A DNA stretch of 64,000 nt from Galliscardovia ingluviei. Its GTDB lineage: Bacteria > Actinomycetota > Actinomycetes > Actinomycetales > Bifidobacteriaceae. The stretch is from positions 620,001 through 684,000 of the forward strand of contig NZ_BMDH01000001.1 in the NCBI RefSeq assembly GCF_014635685.1, given 5' to 3'. Below the pieces are notes generated by a model. The model was not told the origin of the DNA, ran no database searches, and worked only from the letters and a program-made list of their open reading frames with translations. Below, piece by piece: positions 24,780 to 42,706 of the stretch; within the stretch, counting starts at the first letter, position 1; every line of letters starts with the position of its first letter. The translations under genes were made by a program, and so were the position numbers.

Positions 24780-25180
24780 ATGAACCTTGAACAATGGTTT
24801 GACACACGCAATACTCTGCATCAAATAGAACATGCCATTGCCGACCAGCTCCAACACACGTCAGAACCAATGACACTGAATGCATTCTACGTCATGCATT
24901 ATCTTGCCCAGGCGCAAGGAAAGCCACTTACTGTTAACGAAATTAGCGCGTATATTGGGCTAAGCCAGTGTGCCACTTCACGCATGCTTCACCGATTTGA
25001 AGCATCATGCCAAGTTATAGAAAAACATAAAGCCCTACCGATAGGCGTGCATTACAAATCAAACTCACAGACTACGGTAACACACTACTACAAGAAGTAT
25101 ATAGTGCCGTTACACACGTACTTGCCGCATACACACAAGTACCACTTGCACACAAAGAGCAAGTAAAAATCATAGACTGA
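24780..25180 (+). pseudogene. MarR-family regulator, frameshifted
   Basis: The first 75 or so codons from ATG 24780 are a typical MarR winged-helix N-terminal half (YVMHYLAQ, LTVNEISAYIGLSQCATSRML). After LHRFEASCQVIEKHKA the frame breaks: the following sequence makes sense only in the next frame, which reads DRRALQIKLTDYGNTLLQEV and ends at 25180, the classic DRRA-LTDxG wing of MarR proteins. A one-base loss near 25030-25040 explains it. The start is 46 bases from fetA on the opposite strand and the SDR remnant begins 12 bases after the end. Confidence 0.85.
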
Positions 25181-25191
25181 AAAGGGAAACC

Positions 25192-25460
25192 ATGGAACAC
25201 GAAGTACTACTCATAACTGGTGCGTCAAAGGGCATAGGGTTGGCAACAACACTTGCAGCATTAGCACAGGGACATTATGTTGCAGCAACATCGCGTGATA
25301 CTCATCAACTGCAACAGACTATACAGGAAAAAGCTCCTGCACAAGTAGATCATTTTCTTGCAGTGGACAACCTGCTATCGGAGCTATGCAATCACATATT
25401 AACGAGCTCATCACTCAAATCAACGATAACATCGAACTAAGTATGAGTATTGATAGATAA
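25192..25460 (+). pseudogene. Short-chain dehydrogenase with internal deletion
   Basis: Begins as a normal SDR: LLITGASKGIGLATTLAALAQ (TGxxxGIG cofactor loop) then VAATSRDTHQL. After LAVD at about codon 63 the middle of the protein is missing, including the NNAG strand, the YxxxK active site and its serine. A second frame continues with AIGAMQSHINELITQINDN and ends at 25460, which looks like the C-terminal helix of the same kind of SDR. So about 170 codons were deleted and the frame was lost. Good ribosome binding site (AAAGGGAAACC) remains. It probably formed an operon with the marR gene. Confidence 0.8.
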
Positions 25461-25536: not shown

Positions 25537-25582
25537 AGCTTGGTATTGTAATCTAGGAACTGCTACCTATCAATACCAAGCT
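25537..25582 (-). terminator. 12-bp inverted repeat at the end of the sngC-like helicase
   Basis: Perfect arms AGCTTGGTATTG (25537-25548) and CAATACCAAGCT (25571-25582) with a 22-base loop. The right arm covers the stop codon of the minus-strand helicase gene. No T run follows, so it is either a U-less terminator or an RNA 3'-end stabiliser for the defence operon; it also faces the decayed SDR gene. Confidence 0.6.
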
Positions 25583-28001
25583 ACAAGAACATCTGCGTCC
25601 AGCGCTCAATCGCCTCAGCCATACCTTGAATATCAAGCACGCCGTAAGCAAAGCCCTTTTTCACCAATTCAGCAGGCACATACTGATCATACTTCTCAAA
25701 AATAGGAACTTCTTGAGGATAGACCAATTCCAAAGGATCAATACCACGATGAAGCTCATCGGCCACAATAGCATAAAACTCGCGCTCGCTTACTTGCATA
25801 GTAAATTGCATAACATACGGACGTGTAGACTGTAAGCCTTTTAAGCCTAAACGACTAGCGCAGCGAATTTTTAACATACGCTCTAACGCCAAAAATGCGT
25901 AAGTACCTAACCATGGCACTAGCGCGTACGACCTACCACCAAGATGTATAAGCGGTTGCTCAGCCATATGATTGTACTGGGCAAGCGAGCGAGCTTGTGT
26001 TAATCGAGCTTGTGCATGGGGGAGCAAGTACGGGTACATCGTAGATTCGCGTAGCACTTGCGCCATGCGCTGTAGCACTCGTGTATGAATATCGCCTGGT
26101 ACATCGCCAAAATACGCTGGTTTGGTGCCTTGTACCAGTTCGCAGTAGACAAGGTGACGTTCATAATCGATATCTTCGACCACCCACACTCGACCAGCAA
26201 TAGCAATCGTTTCTCCTACAGGAGGCGGCTTAACAATAGTGCCGAGCTCTTGAGAACCGGTGCGAACACTGAATTCAATATTTTCTTGGAATACCGCATA
26301 GAATTTATAATTATTGACAACTTTTTCTCCAGTAATACCGACAATAAGATTGCCAGATTCAGTAAGATTGATATGGTCAGTTGCAATAAGATGACGCAAA
26401 AGCAGGCGATAATCCTCCTGGCTAATAGTATGGAAACAAGCCAATGAGAGTACGCGTGAAGCAAGTTGCGCTGCACTTAATTCACCATACGAAGCAAGGG
26501 TACTCATGGTCTGATGGTAGAGCAAACTATAGGGAAGCCGGTCTAATCTGGCAGGCTCAACAAAATGCTCCTCTGCATAGAGTTGTATCAGTGCAATACC
26601 TTGTAGTAAGTACCATGGGGTATTGGCAGGTGAATCGCTGCGAGCGAGCGCAGGATCTTCTCGCATCACAAACCACATTTCGCTTGGCATACCACGCCTA
26701 CCTGTCCTACCAAGGCGTTGTAGGAAACCAGAAACAGTGAATGGTGCATCGAGATGAAAGGCACGCTCTAATTTACCGATATCAATACCGAGCTCCAAGG
26801 TGGCTGTAGCGCAGATAGAGATAAGACTGTCGTCTTCCTTCATCTCTTCTTCCGCACTTTGGCGCAGTGCAGGTGACAGATTGCCATGATGGATTAAAAA
26901 TCGGTCTGGTTCGCCGGTTATTTCGCAATAATGTCGTAACTGCTGACAGACGATTTCGCATTCTTCACGTGAGTTCGTGAAAATTAAGCATTTATGACCT
27001 TTGGTATGTTCAAAAATATAGCCTATACCTGGGTTTGCTTGTTCTGGTGCTTGATCAGTTGCCTGCTCCTGTATAAAGGTGCTAGGTGGTTCTTGCGCGT
27101 CAAGTAGTGGCTGCTGGTGCTGTGTCAAAGCGTGAGCACGCTGAGGGTGAGTGTGCAACTGAATATCACGTGCTATTTCTTGTTGTGGTAATGCTAAGAC
27201 TGGCTTTGTACTAGTTGATTCAGTACTCATATCAGTGGAAAGTGCATCAGCTTGTGGTCCACTATTATAAAAATGCTCCATACTGATACGCCACACGTCA
27301 TTGCCGGATTCGATATGCGGGATAATAGTAGCTCGATCGCTGCCTGCTGCTAAAAATGCTCCAGCAGATTGTGGATCTCCAATAGTTGCAGAAAGACCAA
27401 TTCGGCGCGGATTACATCCTGCAATTCTACAAAGCCGCTCAATAAGAGCAAAGGTTTGTAGCCCACGATCTGCGCGTAGCAGCGCATGAATTTCATCAAT
27501 AACCACAAAGCGTAAATCGTGGAATAATGATGGAATTTCCATAGCGCGATTGATCAGTAAGGATTCTAAAGATTCAGGAGTAATTTGCACAATACCACTA
27601 GGGTGTTTGAGTAGCCTTCGTTTGGCACTTTGAGAAGCATCACCATGCCATTTCGTGACTGTAATATGCGCTTGCTCACATAATTCATCTAAACGCAGAA
27701 ACTGATCATTAATGAGCGCTTTTAATGGAGCAATATACAAAATACCAACGCTATGAGCCGGAGCTTCATCAAGTAAAGTCAGCATTGGAAAAAACGCTGC
27801 CTCGGTTTTACCAGACGCAGTAGAAGCACAAACTAGTACATGATGGTCGGTAGTAAAAATTGCGCGTCCAGTAGCCTCTTGCACGTCACGTAATGCATGC
27901 CATCCCGATTGGTAAATATAGTCTTGGATAAACGGCGCATATCGACTAAACACATCAACATCATCAGTTGGAGTATCACTTGTATAGTGTGTATTCACCA
28001 T
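25581..28001 (-). CDS. sngC: Shango SngC-like superfamily 2 helicase (Lhr/BrxHI type)
   Basis: 806-residue DExH helicase. N-terminal motor: Q-like region FIQDYIYQSGWHALRDVQ, Walker A ASTASGKTEAAF (about 60-72), VIDEIHALL (Walker B, DEIH), motif III GLSATIG. C-terminal motor: CLIFTNSREECE, TATLELGIDIG and motif VI QRLGRTGRRG. The remaining 350 residues form the long C-terminal part typical of Lhr-like/BrxHI helicases. It is the last gene of a three-gene minus-strand operon with a BrxD-like ATPase and a TerB-domain protein, the composition of the Shango anti-phage system. An insert of about 75 residues rich in Gln and Pro separates the two motor domains. The intact length of all three genes suggests a working system; the Shango name is by composition, not by experiment. 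Confidence 0.82.
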   Translation of the reverse strand: MVNTHYTSDTPTDDVDVFSRYAPFIQDYIYQSGWHALRDVQEATGRAIFTTDHHVLVCASTASGKTEAAFFPMLTLLDEAPAHSVGILYIAPLKALINDQFLRLDELCEQAHITVTKWHGDASQSAKRRLLKHPSGIVQITPESLESLLINRAMEIPSLFHDLRFVVIDEIHALLRADRGLQTFALIERLCRIAGCNPRRIGLSATIGDPQSAGAFLAAGSDRATIIPHIESGNDVWRISMEHFYNSGPQADALSTDMSTESTSTKPVLALPQQEIARDIQLHTHPQRAHALTQHQQPLLDAQEPPSTFIQEQATDQAPEQANPGIGYIFEHTKGHKCLIFTNSREECEIVCQQLRHYCEITGEPDRFLIHHGNLSPALRQSAEEEMKEDDSLISICATATLELGIDIGKLERAFHLDAPFTVSGFLQRLGRTGRRGMPSEMWFVMREDPALARSDSPANTPWYLLQGIALIQLYAEEHFVEPARLDRLPYSLLYHQTMSTLASYGELSAAQLASRVLSLACFHTISQEDYRLLLRHLIATDHINLTESGNLIVGITGEKVVNNYKFYAVFQENIEFSVRTGSQELGTIVKPPPVGETIAIAGRVWVVEDIDYERHLVYCELVQGTKPAYFGDVPGDIHTRVLQRMAQVLRESTMYPYLLPHAQARLTQARSLAQYNHMAEQPLIHLGGRSYALVPWLGTYAFLALERMLKIRCASRLGLKGLQSTRPYVMQFTMQVSEREFYAIVADELHRGIDPLELVYPQEVPIFEKYDQYVPAELVKKGFAYGVLDIQGMAEAIERWTQMFL

Positions 28002-28057
28002 AACCGCCTATCGTTACCATCCGCCCGCTTCCTGCGCAATACATGTACAACCTAAGC

Positions 28058-29488
28058 TCACAACGTAAATTCAGCATATAAACCCTCATCAGGATCAGCA
28101 TTGCGTTCAGGGGCAGACACCACTTGATGCGTTTGCTGTGAAGCGGCACCTGTAGAGTATGCGCCAAACGAGTCATGTACTTGCGGCTGCGGCGCAGAGG
28201 CAAAGGTAAATGAAGAAGAATCAAGAATTGCCTGTAACGTCAAATCAGGATGCTGGTAGAGCAAATCACACAGCTCAATAAAATCTCTAATAATTTCTCG
28301 CGGCGTAATATGCCGATCTGCACCAACTCTGCCATATTCAATTTGAATAAACGAAGCCAGATCCTCAGTAGTAAGACGCGGCTCATAACCATACAGCCCA
28401 CAATGCATCGTCTGTAGCTTCTCACACAAGACCAGTATCTCCTCCGGCGTGAGCGGATCAAGACGAATAACGGGTGCTAATAAATCGCGAGCACCTGGCC
28501 TAGAGAATTTACCCTCCGTCAGCCTAGACCGAAGTGCTTCATAACTATAAATGCCACGGCGTTTATCCTCTAATGTTTGCGGAGTAGCACCAAGAATTAG
28601 CCCCAAATAATGCGCTTTACCTTGTAATGTGTCGTTATACATGGTCAACATTTTTTCATAATTATATTGACGAGTAATGCTGTTTGGAATCTTATAAATA
28701 TTGACCAGCTCATCAATCATCACCAGCAAACCTGCATACCCGGCATAGCGGAAAAACTGCGCAAACAACTTAATATACTCGTACCAATTATCGTCAGTAA
28801 TAATAATATTGACACCAAGTGCTTCTTTTGCTTCCCGTTTCAACGTGAATTCAGCTCTAAACCAGCGTAATACCTGCTGCTGAGTAAGCTCATCGCCATC
28901 AAGATACGCATGATAGTAGCGTGAAAGCAGTGTAGCAAATTCAAAACCATGTACTAACTCACTCATTGATGAAGTGACATGAACAATACGCTGATCGACA
29001 AGAGCACCAACTTTAGGATCGTTAAGCTGCAAACCAGATTCTTGAATAACCTCACTTTGCACATTACTAATCCAACGATCAAGAATCAACGAAAGCGCCC
29101 CGCCCTCAGGCTTAGTTTTAGTAGCCAAATTGCCAATGAGCTCACGATAAGTAGCCAAGCCCTGTCCACGAGAACCCTGCAAGCGACGCTCAGGAGACAA
29201 ATCCGCATCAGCAACAATAAAATCCTTGTCCATAACATAATTGCGAATAGCTTGAATCAGAAAACTCTTACCAGAACCATACTTACCAACAATAAAGCGA
29301 CAAGTAGCGCCCCCATCAGCAATAATATCCACATCACTTAATAATGCTTGAATTTCAAGCTTCCTACCCACAGTAATATACGGCAAGCCGATACGCGGCA
29401 CCACACCACCTTTTAACGCATTGAGTACTGTACGAGCAATACGCTTTGGAACCTTAGGGGCCGACTGTGCGCTGTTGCTAAAATCCAT
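28058..29488 (-). CDS. sngB: Shango SngB-like / BrxD-like AAA ATPase (DUF2791)
   Basis: About 476 residues from ATG 29488, which is preceded by AAGG; a TTG 16 codons further upstream is less likely. The P-loop FIVGKYGSGKSFLIQAIR (about residues 66-83) and DADLSPERRLQGSRGQGL are hallmarks of BREX BrxD-type ATPases; Walker B is LLVMIDELVN. Proteins of this kind load or drive a partner helicase on DNA. It lies 92 bases after the TerB gene and 56 bases before the helicase gene, all on one strand. No BREX methylase or PglZ gene is nearby, which favours Shango over BREX. Confidence 0.82.
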   Translation of the reverse strand: MDFSNSAQSAPKVPKRIARTVLNALKGGVVPRIGLPYITVGRKLEIQALLSDVDIIADGGATCRFIVGKYGSGKSFLIQAIRNYVMDKDFIVADADLSPERRLQGSRGQGLATYRELIGNLATKTKPEGGALSLILDRWISNVQSEVIQESGLQLNDPKVGALVDQRIVHVTSSMSELVHGFEFATLLSRYYHAYLDGDELTQQQVLRWFRAEFTLKREAKEALGVNIIITDDNWYEYIKLFAQFFRYAGYAGLLVMIDELVNIYKIPNSITRQYNYEKMLTMYNDTLQGKAHYLGLILGATPQTLEDKRRGIYSYEALRSRLTEGKFSRPGARDLLAPVIRLDPLTPEEILVLCEKLQTMHCGLYGYEPRLTTEDLASFIQIEYGRVGADRHITPREIIRDFIELCDLLYQHPDLTLQAILDSSSFTFASAPQPQVHDSFGAYSTGAASQQTHQVVSAPERNADPDEGLYAEFTL

Positions 29489-29580
29489 GCGTCCAAACCT
29501 TACTGTCTTAACTATCAAACTATTCAAACTATCCAACTATTGCTTAGCCATTCTATTATGGTATCGCCTGATAAGACCGA

Positions 29581-31593
29581 TTATTGTGCCTGCTGCTCCA
29601 GCCACTGGGCGACATCATCAGCATAATCATCAACTAGTTGCAAAGAAGCACCATCATACTCCACAATGGTATCGCCAAACTCCTGCCAGCAAAGACTATT
29701 AATGCTATCAGCAACAACAGCAGGCAACCGTTGAGCTTGACGAATATCAGCCAATGCTGATTCGCCTGACGAGTCAGCAAGCAAATCCCTGAGAATACGG
29801 TATACAAACTCTTGATCTTGATTGTGCTCCTCTTGTTGCCCCTGAGAGCGAATAGTTTGCTGAGCATCATCATGGGGGTTAACTGAATCCACAAATGATA
29901 GTGTTACAGCATCTGAAGATGAATCGAGCAATGAATCCACACCTGAACTCGTCAATGCCGTTGTTTGATCAGTATCATCACGCTCCTCATCAGTGAGCAA
30001 ACGCTCTTGAGTTAATGCCGCATCAGTACGGATTTTGCCCAATGTGCCCGCGCTGACATCAATCGAAGGAATCTGCACTCGCCGTTGTTGCTGTGCCACA
30101 TACGCAAATCCTTGTTCAACAAGAGGCACAGCCCACAACTCATCATCACGCTCGCGTAAATATCCTCCAGTTTTCCATTGTTTACGCAGTATGCGGTCAA
30201 CAACGCGCAGGAAAGTATCAAGTTGCTTCGTATCAAATGAAAATGGCGAGTATCCCTCGATATACCAAGCGCGTTTCTGATACTCAAGGCGTCGCATTGG
30301 CGTAAGCATATAAGAAACATTAGTTTCTGGCTTAATGGGTTCCACCATAGCGTCGGCAAGAGGGAAGTACTGGCGACGATATGGCTTACCAAAAATAATG
30401 CTAAATAAAGACTGCTTCTGCATGGCTTCGACCGTCTGCCGCGCACAATATGTCCACAGCTGCGCTACCATATGTACGGCTTCATCATGCCGCTTTTTAA
30501 AAATTGGAGACTTACTGAAAGTCGTAGAAAACTCAAATATTGCTTCAATAATTTGTGATTCTTGATACTCCTGAGGTGAATACAATGTATGCAGCAGCGT
30601 ATCTTGTTCTCGTATAGTGTGATCTATAAATTGTTGTATTAAAGCCACATCTACACCGTATAGAACGCAAAAATCAACGATCCACGTATGTAATGCAACA
30701 GTATTAACAGCAAAGAACTCATCCTGCTGCTCAAATTGTGCCAGACAGTGATATGCTTTGCGTGCAGCATCTTCAGGACTGTCAGCACCAACACCATTAA
30801 ATAATTCATTTAAATAAATACTGATAAATACTGCGGAAGCTGGTTGAAGTTGACCAGCACGGTACCGCGTGCGCCAAGTGAAGTATCCGCGCAACTGATT
30901 CAACGTCAAACTTTGATAGGTTGGGTAAAGCCTAAAAAGGGAAGTGCTCCATGTGCCTGTTGTTTCAGTGTAGTCACGCATAAAACGTGCTTGACGAATA
31001 AAAAGTTTGCGCTGTGCATCTAACGATTTTGAGGGTCGTGCTTGTTGTCCCATAGCAAGCATTTGCCGCAACTGTTCAGGAATACTTGGATCATCAAAGC
31101 GCGCATCAGTATGCTGCGCTCTAACAATACGCTGGCTTTGCACGTGTCCGGCGCTATAACTCCTAGTAGAGCGTTGTGTTGGTTGGACAACAATATCAGC
31201 TGGCTGATTTTGCGGATGCACATGGTTGATTACCATTACATTGCCAAGTTCAGCTTTAGCATAGGCCTCATCGAAACACGCAAATACATCATGAGCATCG
31301 TAAACTTGTGAGCAGTCCACGCCAATCCAGTCATTGCCGCTCACCCGTTTAGCAAAAATCACATACGGTGCCTGCTGTTGTGCAAGCATTTGTTTATAAG
31401 GAACACCGCATTTAATATCGCAATATTCAACAAACTCACCCAACTGCTCATTCCATTCACGCATAAGAATGGCTAGCCACGAGCCAGTATGTGGATGCGA
31501 TAATACAGAAACTCCAGGGTATTGCGACCAAGGGAAAGTTTCGTCAATATCGTACTGCTCATATGCATATTCAACCAGTTCACTTAGTTGCAT
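29581..31593 (-). CDS. sngA: Shango SngA-like TerB-N/TerB-C protein with N-terminal MmcQ/YjbR-like domain
   Basis: About 670 residues; start ATG 31593 rather than the TTG two codons earlier. The first 110 residues (TFPWSQYPGVSVLSHPHTGSW, CDIKCG, GNDWIGVDCSQV) look like an MmcQ/YjbR DNA-binding domain. Then a linker, and a clear TerB-N domain around 200-300: ARFMRDYTE, YPTYQSLTLNQLRGYFTWRT, YIYLNELFNG-like region ISIYLNELFNGVG. The C-terminal half holds a TerB-C-like region and an acidic, Asp/Ser-rich stretch at about 545-600. TerB domains are linked with membrane stress and phage defence. First gene of the operon, divergent from thrS across 236 bases. Confidence 0.8.
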   Translation of the reverse strand: MQLSELVEYAYEQYDIDETFPWSQYPGVSVLSHPHTGSWLAILMREWNEQLGEFVEYCDIKCGVPYKQMLAQQQAPYVIFAKRVSGNDWIGVDCSQVYDAHDVFACFDEAYAKAELGNVMVINHVHPQNQPADIVVQPTQRSTRSYSAGHVQSQRIVRAQHTDARFDDPSIPEQLRQMLAMGQQARPSKSLDAQRKLFIRQARFMRDYTETTGTWSTSLFRLYPTYQSLTLNQLRGYFTWRTRYRAGQLQPASAVFISIYLNELFNGVGADSPEDAARKAYHCLAQFEQQDEFFAVNTVALHTWIVDFCVLYGVDVALIQQFIDHTIREQDTLLHTLYSPQEYQESQIIEAIFEFSTTFSKSPIFKKRHDEAVHMVAQLWTYCARQTVEAMQKQSLFSIIFGKPYRRQYFPLADAMVEPIKPETNVSYMLTPMRRLEYQKRAWYIEGYSPFSFDTKQLDTFLRVVDRILRKQWKTGGYLRERDDELWAVPLVEQGFAYVAQQQRRVQIPSIDVSAGTLGKIRTDAALTQERLLTDEERDDTDQTTALTSSGVDSLLDSSSDAVTLSFVDSVNPHDDAQQTIRSQGQQEEHNQDQEFVYRILRDLLADSSGESALADIRQAQRLPAVVADSINSLCWQEFGDTIVEYDGASLQLVDDYADDVAQWLEQQAQ

Positions 31594-40003: not shown

Positions 40004-42706
40004 ATGGTTCGTAGGCGTCGTCGCCGTGAGCAGCATACGCCAGATACAGTGGATCTTGATCCTCAATCACCTGCTGGTCGGTATCGTGCATTTAAGGAGC
40101 GTCAACAGTACAGATCCTCGTATGCGTACTCCTTTGCTCAACGCCTGCCTTTTGCACTTGATGATTTTCAGCAGCAGGCAATTGACGCTTTGGAACAGAA
40201 TAATAATGTTCTTGTTGCAGCTCCAACTGGTGCTGGTAAAACAGTAGTTGCAGATTTTGCAGTATATCTTGCGCAAGAGCGTGGTGTTAAAGCATTCTAT
40301 ACTACGCCAATTAAGGCATTAAGTAATCAAAAGTATCATGAGCTAGTCGCTCAGTATGGCAGCGAGCAAGTAGGACTACTTACTGGTGATTTGTCCGTAA
40401 ATCCAGAGGCGCAGATTGTGGTGATGACCACTGAAGTGTTGCGCAATATGTTGTACACTCATTCCATCACATTGCATGCCCTGAATTTTGTAATTCTTGA
40501 CGAGATTCACTATCTTGCTGACCGATTCAGGGGAGCAGTATGGGAAGAAGTCATTATTTATTTGCCAAGTAGCGTGCGCATTGTGGGATTATCTGCGACA
40601 GTGTCAAATGTAGAAGATTTTTCACGCTGGATTAAATCAACACGAGGCAATACTACATTAGTGATTAGTGAGCAACGACCAGTGCCACTTCGCCAAGAAG
40701 TGATGCTCCAATCCGATGAGCGACACGAACCACAGTTATATCCGCTATTCCAACGCGGAACTACAACATTAAATCATCAGCTGACGATGCGTCTTAAGGA
40801 GCTTGATCATAAGGCAGCTCGTAGAATAGGTGGTGCCGGGGATACTTATAGTCGAACAAAACGCCCTTCTGGTAGATACCATCGTGCATCAGCTAAGCAA
40901 TTAGTATCGTCTCGTCAGGGTCGTGGTCAGCGTTATACTCCGAAACGTTGGGCTGTTGTTGATGAACTTGACGTATTAGATCGTTTACCAGCAATTTATT
41001 TTATTTTCTCTCGTGCTGGATGCGATCAGGCGGTTCGTCAGTGTATGCAAGCTGGATTGCGATTGACCACGGATAGCGAAGCATTACGTATTCGACATAT
41101 TGTCGAAACTATGATTGATGGGCAACTTTCACGAGATGAGTTAAAAGCACTTGGTTTCTCGCATTTTATTCGCGCTTTAGAAGAAGGTATTGCTGCTCAC
41201 CATGCTGGTATGATTGCGCTTTTTAGGCAAATTGTTGAGACCTTATTTGAACAGGGTTTAGTGAAAATAGTTTTTGCTACAGAAACACTTGCTCTCGGTA
41301 TCAACATGCCAGCACGTAGTGTTGTTATCGAAAAACTTGAGAAGTTTAATGGTACAGGCCATGTTGATTTAACGCCTGGGGAGTTTACACAGCTTACCGG
41401 TCGAGCTGGTAGACGTGGAACTGATACAATCGGTCATGCGATCGTAGTGGATCATCAGGGTTTTGTCGCACAGACGGCAGCATCACTATCTTCTAAGCGT
41501 GTATATCCATTGCATTCGAGTTTTAAGCCAACATTTAGCATGGCTGTAAACTTATTAAACACATCAAGTGTGGCAATGGCACAGGATACGCTGGAACATT
41601 CGTTCGCACAATGGGAAGCTAATGCCTCAGCGTCGTCATTGGATTCGCGTATTGAGCAATTAAAGCAAGCAATACACGGCTACGAGCAGGCTATGCAATG
41701 CGAATATGGTGAAATTACCGAATTATTGCGTATTCGTATGAGGCTTACGGATGCACAGCGAGGGGAGAGGAATGCTCTTAAACATCGTGTTTTTAGTTCA
41801 ACTCAGGCACGATCAGGCGCCTTTCGATCATTAGATAGTAAAATTGATACCTTGAAAGCTCAAGATCGAGCCCATCCATGTCGTCAATGCCCTGATATTG
41901 ATGAGCATATGCGCTGGGGACATCGTTGGACAAGAGAGACACGAGAATTAGAGCGGCTAGAACATCGTAGAGATTCACGTACAGGTTCTGTTGTACGCAG
42001 GTTTTCTGTTATCTGTCATATTCTGCTGGCTCTTGGTATTGTTATCGATCCTAAAGAGTCGAGACACGATGAGCTTGAGGAAAACTATGATGCGCGACGT
42101 ATCGAACAGCTCTACGATGGCAATATGCCAATTGCTATTGAGCACAGGTCACTTCCTGATACATTAGTGCTCAGTACACAAGGTCAATTACTGCGTCGAA
42201 TTTATAGCGAACTCGATATTGTAATTGCGCAATGTTTGACACAAGGCGTATTTGACGGTCTTTCTCCCGAAGCGTTTGTCGCAGTGCTTTCTGCATTTAT
42301 CTATGAATCACACCACGGCTCAACTGGGCAGCCTGCTCATTATCCAGGGGGTGCAAAAGGCGATATCGCCGTGGCAGCATCACGCATGCAAACGCTGTGG
42401 TATCGCATGAATACCTTGTGTACGGATATGGGTTTAGAACCTTTGCGTCCGCTTGACTTTGGTATGGTTGAAGTTGTTTTTGACTGGGCTACTGGAGCAG
42501 ATTTGGCGCAAACGCTGTCAAATAATCGTGATTTAACTGGCGGTGATTTTGTTCGTTCGTGTAAGCGGATTATTGATCTGCTCGGTCAAATTGAGCAAGT
42601 TCGTGATTTCTTACCGGAACACGGGCAAACGAATGTTGCAGATTTGGCGCATTTTGCACGAGCTATTGTTAATCGCTCTGTTGTGGCGTATTCAGGTTTG
42701 GAATAA
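40004..42706 (+). CDS. helY: HelY-like SKI2/MTR4-type RNA/DNA helicase
   Basis: 900-residue DExH helicase: Walker A APTGAGKTVVADF (about 76-88), DEIHYLAD, LSATVSN, then the second motor with FIFSRAGCDQA-like segment, LALGINMPARSVV and QLTGRAGRRG (motif VI). After the motor there is a long C-terminal arch region with a CRQCPDIDEHM cysteine pair, as in MTR4/SKI2-like bacterial HelY proteins. Acts presumably on structured RNA; the cellular role in actinobacteria is not settled. Directly upstream of rbpA. RBS GGGGAAA seven bases before ATG. Confidence 0.9.
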   Translation: MVRRRRRREQHTPDTVDLDPQSPAGRYRAFKERQQYRSSYAYSFAQRLPFALDDFQQQAIDALEQNNNVLVAAPTGAGKTVVADFAVYLAQERGVKAFYTTPIKALSNQKYHELVAQYGSEQVGLLTGDLSVNPEAQIVVMTTEVLRNMLYTHSITLHALNFVILDEIHYLADRFRGAVWEEVIIYLPSSVRIVGLSATVSNVEDFSRWIKSTRGNTTLVISEQRPVPLRQEVMLQSDERHEPQLYPLFQRGTTTLNHQLTMRLKELDHKAARRIGGAGDTYSRTKRPSGRYHRASAKQLVSSRQGRGQRYTPKRWAVVDELDVLDRLPAIYFIFSRAGCDQAVRQCMQAGLRLTTDSEALRIRHIVETMIDGQLSRDELKALGFSHFIRALEEGIAAHHAGMIALFRQIVETLFEQGLVKIVFATETLALGINMPARSVVIEKLEKFNGTGHVDLTPGEFTQLTGRAGRRGTDTIGHAIVVDHQGFVAQTAASLSSKRVYPLHSSFKPTFSMAVNLLNTSSVAMAQDTLEHSFAQWEANASASSLDSRIEQLKQAIHGYEQAMQCEYGEITELLRIRMRLTDAQRGERNALKHRVFSSTQARSGAFRSLDSKIDTLKAQDRAHPCRQCPDIDEHMRWGHRWTRETRELERLEHRRDSRTGSVVRRFSVICHILLALGIVIDPKESRHDELEENYDARRIEQLYDGNMPIAIEHRSLPDTLVLSTQGQLLRRIYSELDIVIAQCLTQGVFDGLSPEAFVAVLSAFIYESHHGSTGQPAHYPGGAKGDIAVAASRMQTLWYRMNTLCTDMGLEPLRPLDFGMVEVVFDWATGADLAQTLSNNRDLTGGDFVRSCKRIIDLLGQIEQVRDFLPEHGQTNVADLAHFARAIVNRSVVAYSGLE

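What the first reader, a model, noticed from the sequence alone, without database searches (positions are those of the whole stretch)
25581..31593. Three-gene TerB / BrxD-like ATPase / Lhr-like helicase operon, Shango-like anti-phage system
Three minus-strand genes with small gaps (56 and 92 bases by chosen starts) encode a TerB-N protein, a BrxD-type ATPase and a BrxHI-type helicase. Seen in sequence: TerB-N motifs, P-loop GKYGSGKS, and helicase motifs DEIH and GRTGRRG. Established: TerB + ATPase + helicase is the composition of Shango (SngA, SngB, SngC); BrxD and BrxHI also occur in type 2 BREX. Inference: this is an intact Shango-like defence locus in a Bifidobacteriaceae-type genome. No methylase, PglZ or PglX neighbours, so BREX is unlikely.
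Basis: partly seen in the sequence, partly recalled or inferred. Interest (0 to 1): 0.9.

Follow-up and report, generated by a model that had tools for sequence, protein, structure and literature searches.

The report
Shango anti-phage operon, variant SngA
Three neighbouring genes form an intact Shango-type anti-phage defence operon, already a known kind, but its first protein carries an unusual DNA-binding-type front domain and shows no TerB core, which better-known versions have.

Summary
PADLOC places all three in Shango (884.6, 607.4 and 140.1 bits); BREX models score far lower (BrxHI 404.8, BrxD 143.8). The genome shows no BrxC, and no PglZ or PglX match over its cut-off. The operon is patchy: strong SngB in 13 of 189 family genomes, own included, and in none of 8 others of the genus. 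Of the 80 nearest named loci, 76 keep sngA-sngB-sngC in order on one strand. So it is Shango, a known kind. SngA diverges much faster than SngB and SngC (median identity 48 against 83 and 82%). I infer that SngA recognises the target, SngB (Orc/Cdc6-like) loads and SngC (Lhr-like helicase) translocates; I recognised no nuclease. Defence activity was not tested.

The parts
25581..28001 (-). sngC, 806 aa, Lhr/BrxHI-like SF2 helicase
   Evidence: PADLOC SngC 884.6 bits over residues 17-798; PF00270 and PF00271; best solved relative Lhr 5v9x by sequence and by fold, Z 26.3 (moderate model, mean pLDDT 65.9)
28058..29488 (-). sngB, AAA+ ATPase of the BrxC/BrxD family (476 aa from ATG 29488; the ORF extends to TTG 29536)
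   Evidence: PADLOC SngB 607.4 bits; PF10923 542 bits
29264..29287 (-). SngB P-loop GKYGSGKS
   Evidence: sequence; G84, Y86, G87, G89, K90 and S91 invariant in 12 family members
28706..28729 (-). SngB Walker B region (LLVMIDEL)
   Evidence: D275 and E276 invariant in 12 family members; motif name recalled
29581..31593 (-). sngA, 670 aa from ATG 31593 (ORF to TTG 31599, 672 aa)
   Evidence: PADLOC SngA 140.1 bits, residues 157-667 to profile 63-527
31246..31593 (-). SngA N-terminal MmcQ/YjbR-type domain (residues 3-118 of the 672-aa ORF)
   Evidence: profile of 52 SngA matches PSPTO_3016 (2kfp/3h9x) at E 5.3e-12 over positions 1-110; AF2 model to 3h9x Z 15.6, rmsd 2.1, 112 aligned; PF04237 in 22 of 52 members at E<=0.1, but not in the window protein itself
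30562..31101 (-). SngA TerB_N domain (residues 167-346)
   Evidence: PF13208 62.3 bits
29611..30093 (-). SngA TerB_C domain (residues 503-663)
   Evidence: PF15615 28.3 bits; model residues about 580-672 resemble winged-helix DNA-binding domains only weakly, Z 6.3 or less
27804..27827 (-). SngC motif I ASTASGKT
   Evidence: sequence; T61-T66 invariant; motif names recalled
27486..27497 (-). SngC motif II DEIH
   Evidence: sequence; D169, E170 and H172 invariant
26691..26711 (-). SngC motif VI GRTGRRG
   Evidence: sequence; residues 431-436 invariant (G437 only)

Best explanation
This is an intact, probably horizontally mobile Shango-family anti-phage operon (sngABC) of a variant with a YjbR-type domain on SngA and no detectable TerB core. 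Shown: the identity of the three proteins, their order, their patchy spread, and the domain make-up of SngA. Inferred: SngA recognises the invading DNA or replication structure (a double-wing N-domain plus a possibly winged-helix C-terminal domain); SngB, an Orc/Cdc6-type AAA+ ATPase, is recruited and loads SngC; SngC, an Lhr-like helicase, translocates on the phage DNA and disrupts its replication. With no recognised nuclease in the operon, DNA destruction, if any, would fall to host nucleases. Identity as Shango is near certain (about 0.95); this division of labour is my best guess (about 0.5).
For: Shango profiles best for all three proteins. Operon order kept in 12 of 12 sister-family loci, one with a broken sngB, and in 76 of 80 named loci. 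Patchy: 13 of 189 family genomes with strong hits, counting the own genome, and none of the 8 others of the same genus. SngB is 68-78% identical to the 80 kept copies, from records named Bacillota groups, Bacteroidales, Chloroflexi and others, against 61-72% to 11 copies of its own family. Shango has been tested against phages in P. aeruginosa (PMC10250203, passages). The N-domain is a YjbR homologue; YjbR proteins have a MotA-like double-wing fold, are thought to bind DNA and are known fused to TerB (PMC7641849, passages). BrxD was proposed as a possible loader of BrxHI (PMC12839542, passages). SngA is less identical than SngB and than SngC in 1891 of 1891 locus pairs, as expected of a recognition part or a target of phage escape.
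Against: No activity was tested. The N-domain was not found in 17 of 66 full-length SngA ORFs nor in any of 17 other actinobacterial loci (one SngA there, L186, is cut at the locus edge and one, L179, is only weakly matched), so it cannot be essential to the system. Within SngA the N-domain is the most conserved part (median 57%, against 44-51% in the other domains), which speaks against it being the arms-race surface. The winged-helix likeness of TerB_C is weak. The SngC model is only moderate. The SngB tree is about half unresolved and puts the window beside two copies of its own family, so the transfer route is unproven.
Confidence: 0.55

Rival explanations
1. A remnant or offshoot of type 2 BREX: the BrxD-BrxHI pair working with BREX core genes elsewhere in the genome.
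For: SngB and SngC do match BrxD (143.8 bits) and BrxHI (404.8 bits), and PF10923 is named BrxC/BrxD.
Against: Shango profiles score much higher (607.4 and 884.6). SngB is under the BrxD equivalog cut-off (146.1 against 350 bits). No BrxC; PglZ 21 bits against a cut-off of 25; PglX (type 1 model) 35.6 against 500; the sngB gene is the only PF10923 hit. The genome is 95.6% complete, so a missed locus is possible but unlikely. PglW was not searched.
Confidence: 0.03
2. A chromosomal DNA-repair or stress operon rather than defence (Lhr and TerB families have such roles; recalled).
For: The best solved fold matches of SngC are the Lhr and MrfA helicases; the window neighbours looked up are mostly housekeeping genes.
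Against: Absent from all 8 other same-genus genomes and most of the family. Copies lie on plasmids of other bacteria: 691 of 72,556 plasmid records have a SngB-like match, 542 of those predicted conjugative, though the count may include true BrxD. A related operon protects P. aeruginosa.
Confidence: 0.1
3. Shango in this variant acts by sensing phage and killing or arresting the cell (abortive infection) rather than by acting on phage DNA.
For: Helicase-based systems such as Hachiman sense damaged DNA and release an effector (PMC12278908, start of abstract in the listing); protection by P. [quoted passage not shown]
Against: No effector domain (nuclease, toxin, membrane pore) was recognised in the three proteins by Pfam; extra genes sit between the sng genes in only a few relatives.
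Confidence: 0.3

Closest known systems
Shango (SngA, SngB, SngC) of Klebsiella, Sulfitobacter and Pseudomonas type
   Same: Same three proteins in the same order; SngB 37% identical to Klebsiella plasmid copies; the Klebsiella genes hit the same three profiles.
   Different: The Klebsiella and Sulfitobacter SngA have a detectable PF05099 TerB core and, by eye, a hydrophobic N-terminal stretch; the window SngA shows neither, but has a YjbR-type domain. The Pseudomonas protein itself was not examined.
Shango copies of gut Bacillota, Bacteroidota and others (loci L050-L129)
   Same: Same order in 76 of 80; SngB 68-78% identical in the 80, SngC 62-72% in the 36 aligned; YjbR-type domain in 49 of 66 full-length SngA ORFs.
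   Different: In 17 of 66 the domain was not found; a few have genes inserted inside the operon.
Type 2 BREX BrxD-BrxHI pair
   Same: Homologous ATPase and helicase.
   Different: Lower scores, and a SngA partner; no BrxC, and no PglZ or PglX over cut-off in the genome.
MmcQ/YjbR-TerB fusions (Anantharaman et al. 2012, as cited in PMC7641849)
   Same: The fusion of a YjbR domain to a TerB protein is already mentioned in print.
   Different: That paper could not be read here, so whether it describes this operon is unknown; in the window protein only TerB_N and TerB_C are detectable.

Membership tests
Shango, as defined by the three Sng profiles | SngA, SngB and SngC profiles each hit, best or only family for that protein | tested here: met
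   140.1, 607.4 and 884.6 bits
Shango, as defined by the three Sng profiles | Three adjacent genes in the order sngA-sngB-sngC on one strand | tested here: met
   the same order in relatives
Shango, as defined by the three Sng profiles | Protects against phages | not testable with these tools
   published for P. aeruginosa PA14 (PMC10250203, passages)
TerB-core Shango (a review's domain table lists PF05099 TerB for Shango: PMC10952713, passage) | PF05099 TerB core in SngA | tested here: not met
   not found in the window SngA (max E 10; max E 0.1) nor in any of the 52 SngA of A4 (window plus 51); found in 2 of 3 plasmid references
TerB-core Shango (a review's domain table lists PF05099 TerB for Shango: PMC10952713, passage) | TerB_N and TerB_C domains in SngA | tested here: met
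   62.3 and 28.3 bits, over cut-offs 25 and 26.3
Type 2 BREX | PglZ | tested here: not met
   own genome, best match 21 bits, E 3e-4, below cut-off 25; genome 95.6% complete
Type 2 BREX | BrxC | tested here: not met
   NF033441 no match; the only PF10923 match is sngB
Type 2 BREX | PglX/BrxX methyltransferase | tested here: not met
   NF033452 (BREX_1_MTaseX) 35.6 bits, E 1.3e-9, against cut-off 500; the same model rings below cut-off in 8 of 14 control genomes
Type 2 BREX | PglW | not tested
   no search of the own genome was made with a PglW model
MmcQ/YjbR domain family (PF04237) | Sequence or fold match of the SngA N-domain | tested here: met
   profile E 5.3e-12 to PSPTO_3016; Z 15.6 to 3h9x; direct PF04237 hits in 22 of 52 members, not in the window protein itself
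MmcQ/YjbR domain family (PF04237) | DNA binding | not testable with these tools
   proposed in print from fold likeness to MotA (PMC7641849, passages); 1kaf MotA only Z 4.2 here
Lhr-like helicases | SF2 core plus Lhr-type C-terminal part | tested here: met
   5v9x aligned over model 15-805, Z 26.3, rmsd 5.5, 558 aligned; model of moderate confidence

The most novel reading that the evidence does not exclude
Shango is a family with a constant engine (SngB loader plus SngC Lhr-like helicase, about 82% identical among gut copies from several phyla) and an exchangeable, fast-changing recognition subunit SngA, whose front end is swapped between a YjbR double-wing DNA reader, nothing, or a hydrophobic anchor with a TerB core further on; the gut variant recognises a DNA feature directly rather than at the membrane or through a TerB metal-binding core.
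Probability: 0.3. Interest if true: 0.5.

Novelty: new variant of a known kind. Interest (0 to 1): 0.3.

Why it matters
None of the paper passages that I opened explains how Shango works, and my searches (open-licence papers, listings only for most hits) showed no paper on its mechanism. The variant suggests which parts are dispensable (TerB core, N-terminal hydrophobic stretch) and which are constant (loader and helicase), and offers a domain whose removal or swap could show what SngA recognises. It also suggests that the operon moves between phyla in animal guts. For annotation: a locus whose SngA shows no TerB core is still Shango by profile.

Tried and rejected
BREX reading: rejected by scores and by core genes missing or below cut-off. 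The PglZ-like 21-bit and PglX-like 35.6-bit matches were not followed further.

Defence-island reading of the window: of 52 non-overlapping window ORFs of 90 aa or more, 45 were scanned together and the other seven. One search gives a tally by family (25 of 34 shown) and does not say which ORF: many HamB models in one member each, and in one member each CARF5--CARF_ADA (4.4e-34), PDC-M23B, SngC, WYL and LmuB; BrxHI in two. I did not assign these one by one. The helicase ORF 40004-42706 has a DSHCT domain, so I take the HamB hits to be a housekeeping Ski2-like helicase (inference). A second defence gene in the window is thus not excluded.

Empty-site comparison with same-genus genomes led nowhere. 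Eight thrS regions and six fetAB regions were read. thrS is kept in all eight, but the genes to its left differ from those of the window (in two of them they are genes that lie at 44-49 kb of the window), and fetAB lies elsewhere, so no clean insertion boundary could be drawn. GC content shows no step at the operon.

Neighbours of relatives: 125 flanking or inserted ORFs, chosen from 311 neighbours of at least 140 aa, include restriction enzymes, methylases and CARF nucleases, but no control set was scanned, so I claim no enrichment.

Tree of SngB: quick method, careful search not finished, 44 of 90 inner branches open; the window groups with two other family members at support 91 (not starred). 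L068 was left out of the 94 rows as a presumed duplicate of G002. No claim on route or direction of transfer rests on it.

Viral contigs (none of 75 pattern matches confirmed) and phage records: no SngB relative. Papers on Shango with Bifidobacterium: 38 hits, 20 listed, none about phage defence by title; not opened. The 2012 Ter paper is not held. SngB has no convincing solved relative by sequence (best E 0.14). 'TerB_C is a winged helix' was left as a weak hint (Z 6.3 or less).

Full report
Check of the observation. With the ATG starts the gaps are 56 and 92 bases, as stated. The P-loop of the ATPase and the helicase motifs are as described and are conserved in relatives.

Identity. PADLOC gives SngC 884.6, SngB 607.4 and SngA 140.1 bits. 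BrxHI and BrxD are the runners-up at 404.8 and 143.8, and SngA has no other match. Pfam gives DEAD and Helicase_C, BrxC_BrxD (PF10923), and TerB_N plus TerB_C. SngB falls far under the NCBIfam cut-off for BrxD (146.1 against 350). In the own genome the sngB gene is the only PF10923 hit. PglZ (21 bits against a cut-off of 25) and PglX (35.6 against 500) stay below cut-off, and BrxC has no match. PglW was not searched.

Spread. In 189 family genomes (own included), 15 have a SngB match at E 0.001 or better. Two of these (G036, G054) are weak partial matches, leaving 13 strong; one of the 13 (G031) has sngB broken into two ORFs with a stop between its pieces. None of the 8 other same-genus genomes has it. 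All 12 sister-family loci read have sngA-sngB-sngC in order. By their titles they are mostly gut Bacillota, with some Bacteroidales, Chloroflexi, planctomycetes, spirochaetes and others, at 68-78% identity to the window SngB. Most are metagenome bins, so single host names may be wrong. All three genes in order on one strand are found in 76 of 80. The other four (L078, L081, L099, L103) lack a detected sngA or sngC; in L081 and L103 sngB begins within 900 bases of the start of the stretch held. SngB identity to 11 copies of the window's own family is 61-72%. This fits transfer between phyla, but the quick tree leaves about half of its branches unsupported and places the window beside two copies of its own family, so the route is not shown. 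In 396 actinobacterial genomes (own included) 35 have a match at E 0.001 or better; 18 of them, own included, are above 560 bits.

SngA make-up. The window SngA shows three regions. Residues 3-118 form a domain that Pfam does not name in this protein. But PF04237 (YjbR) is hit in 22 of the 52 SngA of alignment A4 (window plus 51 of the 66 full-length ORFs from the 80 loci; best E 8e-6); a profile of the 52 matches the solved YjbR-family protein PSPTO_3016 at E 5e-12; and the predicted structure (mean pLDDT 83.4) aligns with it at Z 15.6, rmsd 2.1 over 112 residues. Then come TerB_N (167-346) and TerB_C (503-663). The TerB core PF05099 was not detected in the window protein even at E 10, nor in any of the 52 at E 0.1. 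It is present in SngA of Klebsiella and Sulfitobacter plasmids and absent from a Paenibacillus copy. Among 66 full-length SngA ORFs from 65 of the 80 loci, my own profile of the domain (built from 46 rows of A4, so partly circular) finds it in 49 and not in 17; in one of the 17 (L054) a weak trace lies in the upstream frames. It also finds it in three of the 12 sister-family loci (L021, L022, L028). One same-family SngA that it misses (L023) has a weak direct PF04237 match (E 0.0019), and two near relatives (L024, L029) align with it there, so the true count may be higher. In 17 other actinobacterial loci the profile found it in no SngA, with one SngA (L186) cut at the locus edge and one (L179) only weakly matched. 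The own genome also has one separate YjbR gene over the cut-off. A YjbR-TerB fusion is mentioned in print (PMC7641849, passages, citing a 2012 paper that I could not read), so the fusion itself is not new. I found no description of it as part of Shango in my searches, which cover open-licence papers only and of which I opened few.

Rates. In 62 loci with all three genes long enough, median pairwise identity is 48% for SngA, 83% for SngB and 82% for SngC, and SngA is lower than each of the others in 1891 of 1891 pairs. The loci were chosen by SngB likeness, which flatters SngB but less so SngC. Within SngA the N-domain is the most conserved (57%) and the linker the least (32%).

Mechanism. PMC12839542 (abstract and passages) describes BrxD as an Orc/Cdc6-type AAA+ ATPase and suggests that it may load the Lhr-tailed helicase BrxHI. 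SngB and SngC are their homologues, and SngC aligns with Lhr along nearly its whole length (Z 26.3; moderate model). PMC12278908 (passages) puts SngC, BrxHI, DruE and DpdJ in a potentially distinct clade of defence helicases. I infer that SngA recognises, SngB loads and SngC translocates. What is destroyed, and by what, is open: I recognised no nuclease domain. P. aeruginosa Shango gave modest (10-100-fold) protection on plates, not against all phages, and generally strong protection in liquid (PMC10250203, passages).

Verdict. An ordinary, intact member of a known defence family by its profiles, with a variant SngA that is common among the nearest gut copies and, as far as I could search, not described for Shango.

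Noticed in passing
window 24780-25437 (+): A MarR-like ORF followed by an 82-codon fragment of a short-chain dehydrogenase (only positions 2-52 of 195 of PF00106 match), whose stop ends 140 bases before the sngC stop codon: a decayed gene pair at the operon's 3' border. In the genus only weak matches to the fragment (best E 4e-6) in 3 of 8 other genomes.
   Followed up: partly
L052 2769-7997: Two sngA-like ORFs in tandem (1092 and 648 aa) upstream of one sngB.
   Followed up: no
L062, L065, L114, L118, L128: Extra DNA with genes inside the Shango operon: 1.1-4.2 kb between sngB and sngC in four loci (L062, L065, L114, L118), about 2 kb between sngA and sngB in two (L118, L128). They may be accessory effectors.
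   Followed up: no
L031 6963-12663: sngB broken into two ORFs beside a long sngC and a shortened sngA, a likely decaying copy.
   Followed up: no
L073, L102, L112 (start of sngA): By eye, SngA proteins that keep the first residues of the YjbR-type domain and the linker after it but lack the domain between, as if it had been cut out in frame.
   Followed up: no
plasmid records, e.g. L146: 691 of 72,556 plasmid records carry a SngB-like match, mainly Klebsiella (449) and Salmonella (144), 542 predicted conjugative; the Klebsiella record opened (L146) has a full sngA-B-C operon. Some of the 691 may be BrxD.
   Followed up: no
window 40004-42706 (+): Ski2-like helicase with DSHCT domain, taken to be the source of the HamB-type PADLOC hits; probably housekeeping.
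   Followed up: partly
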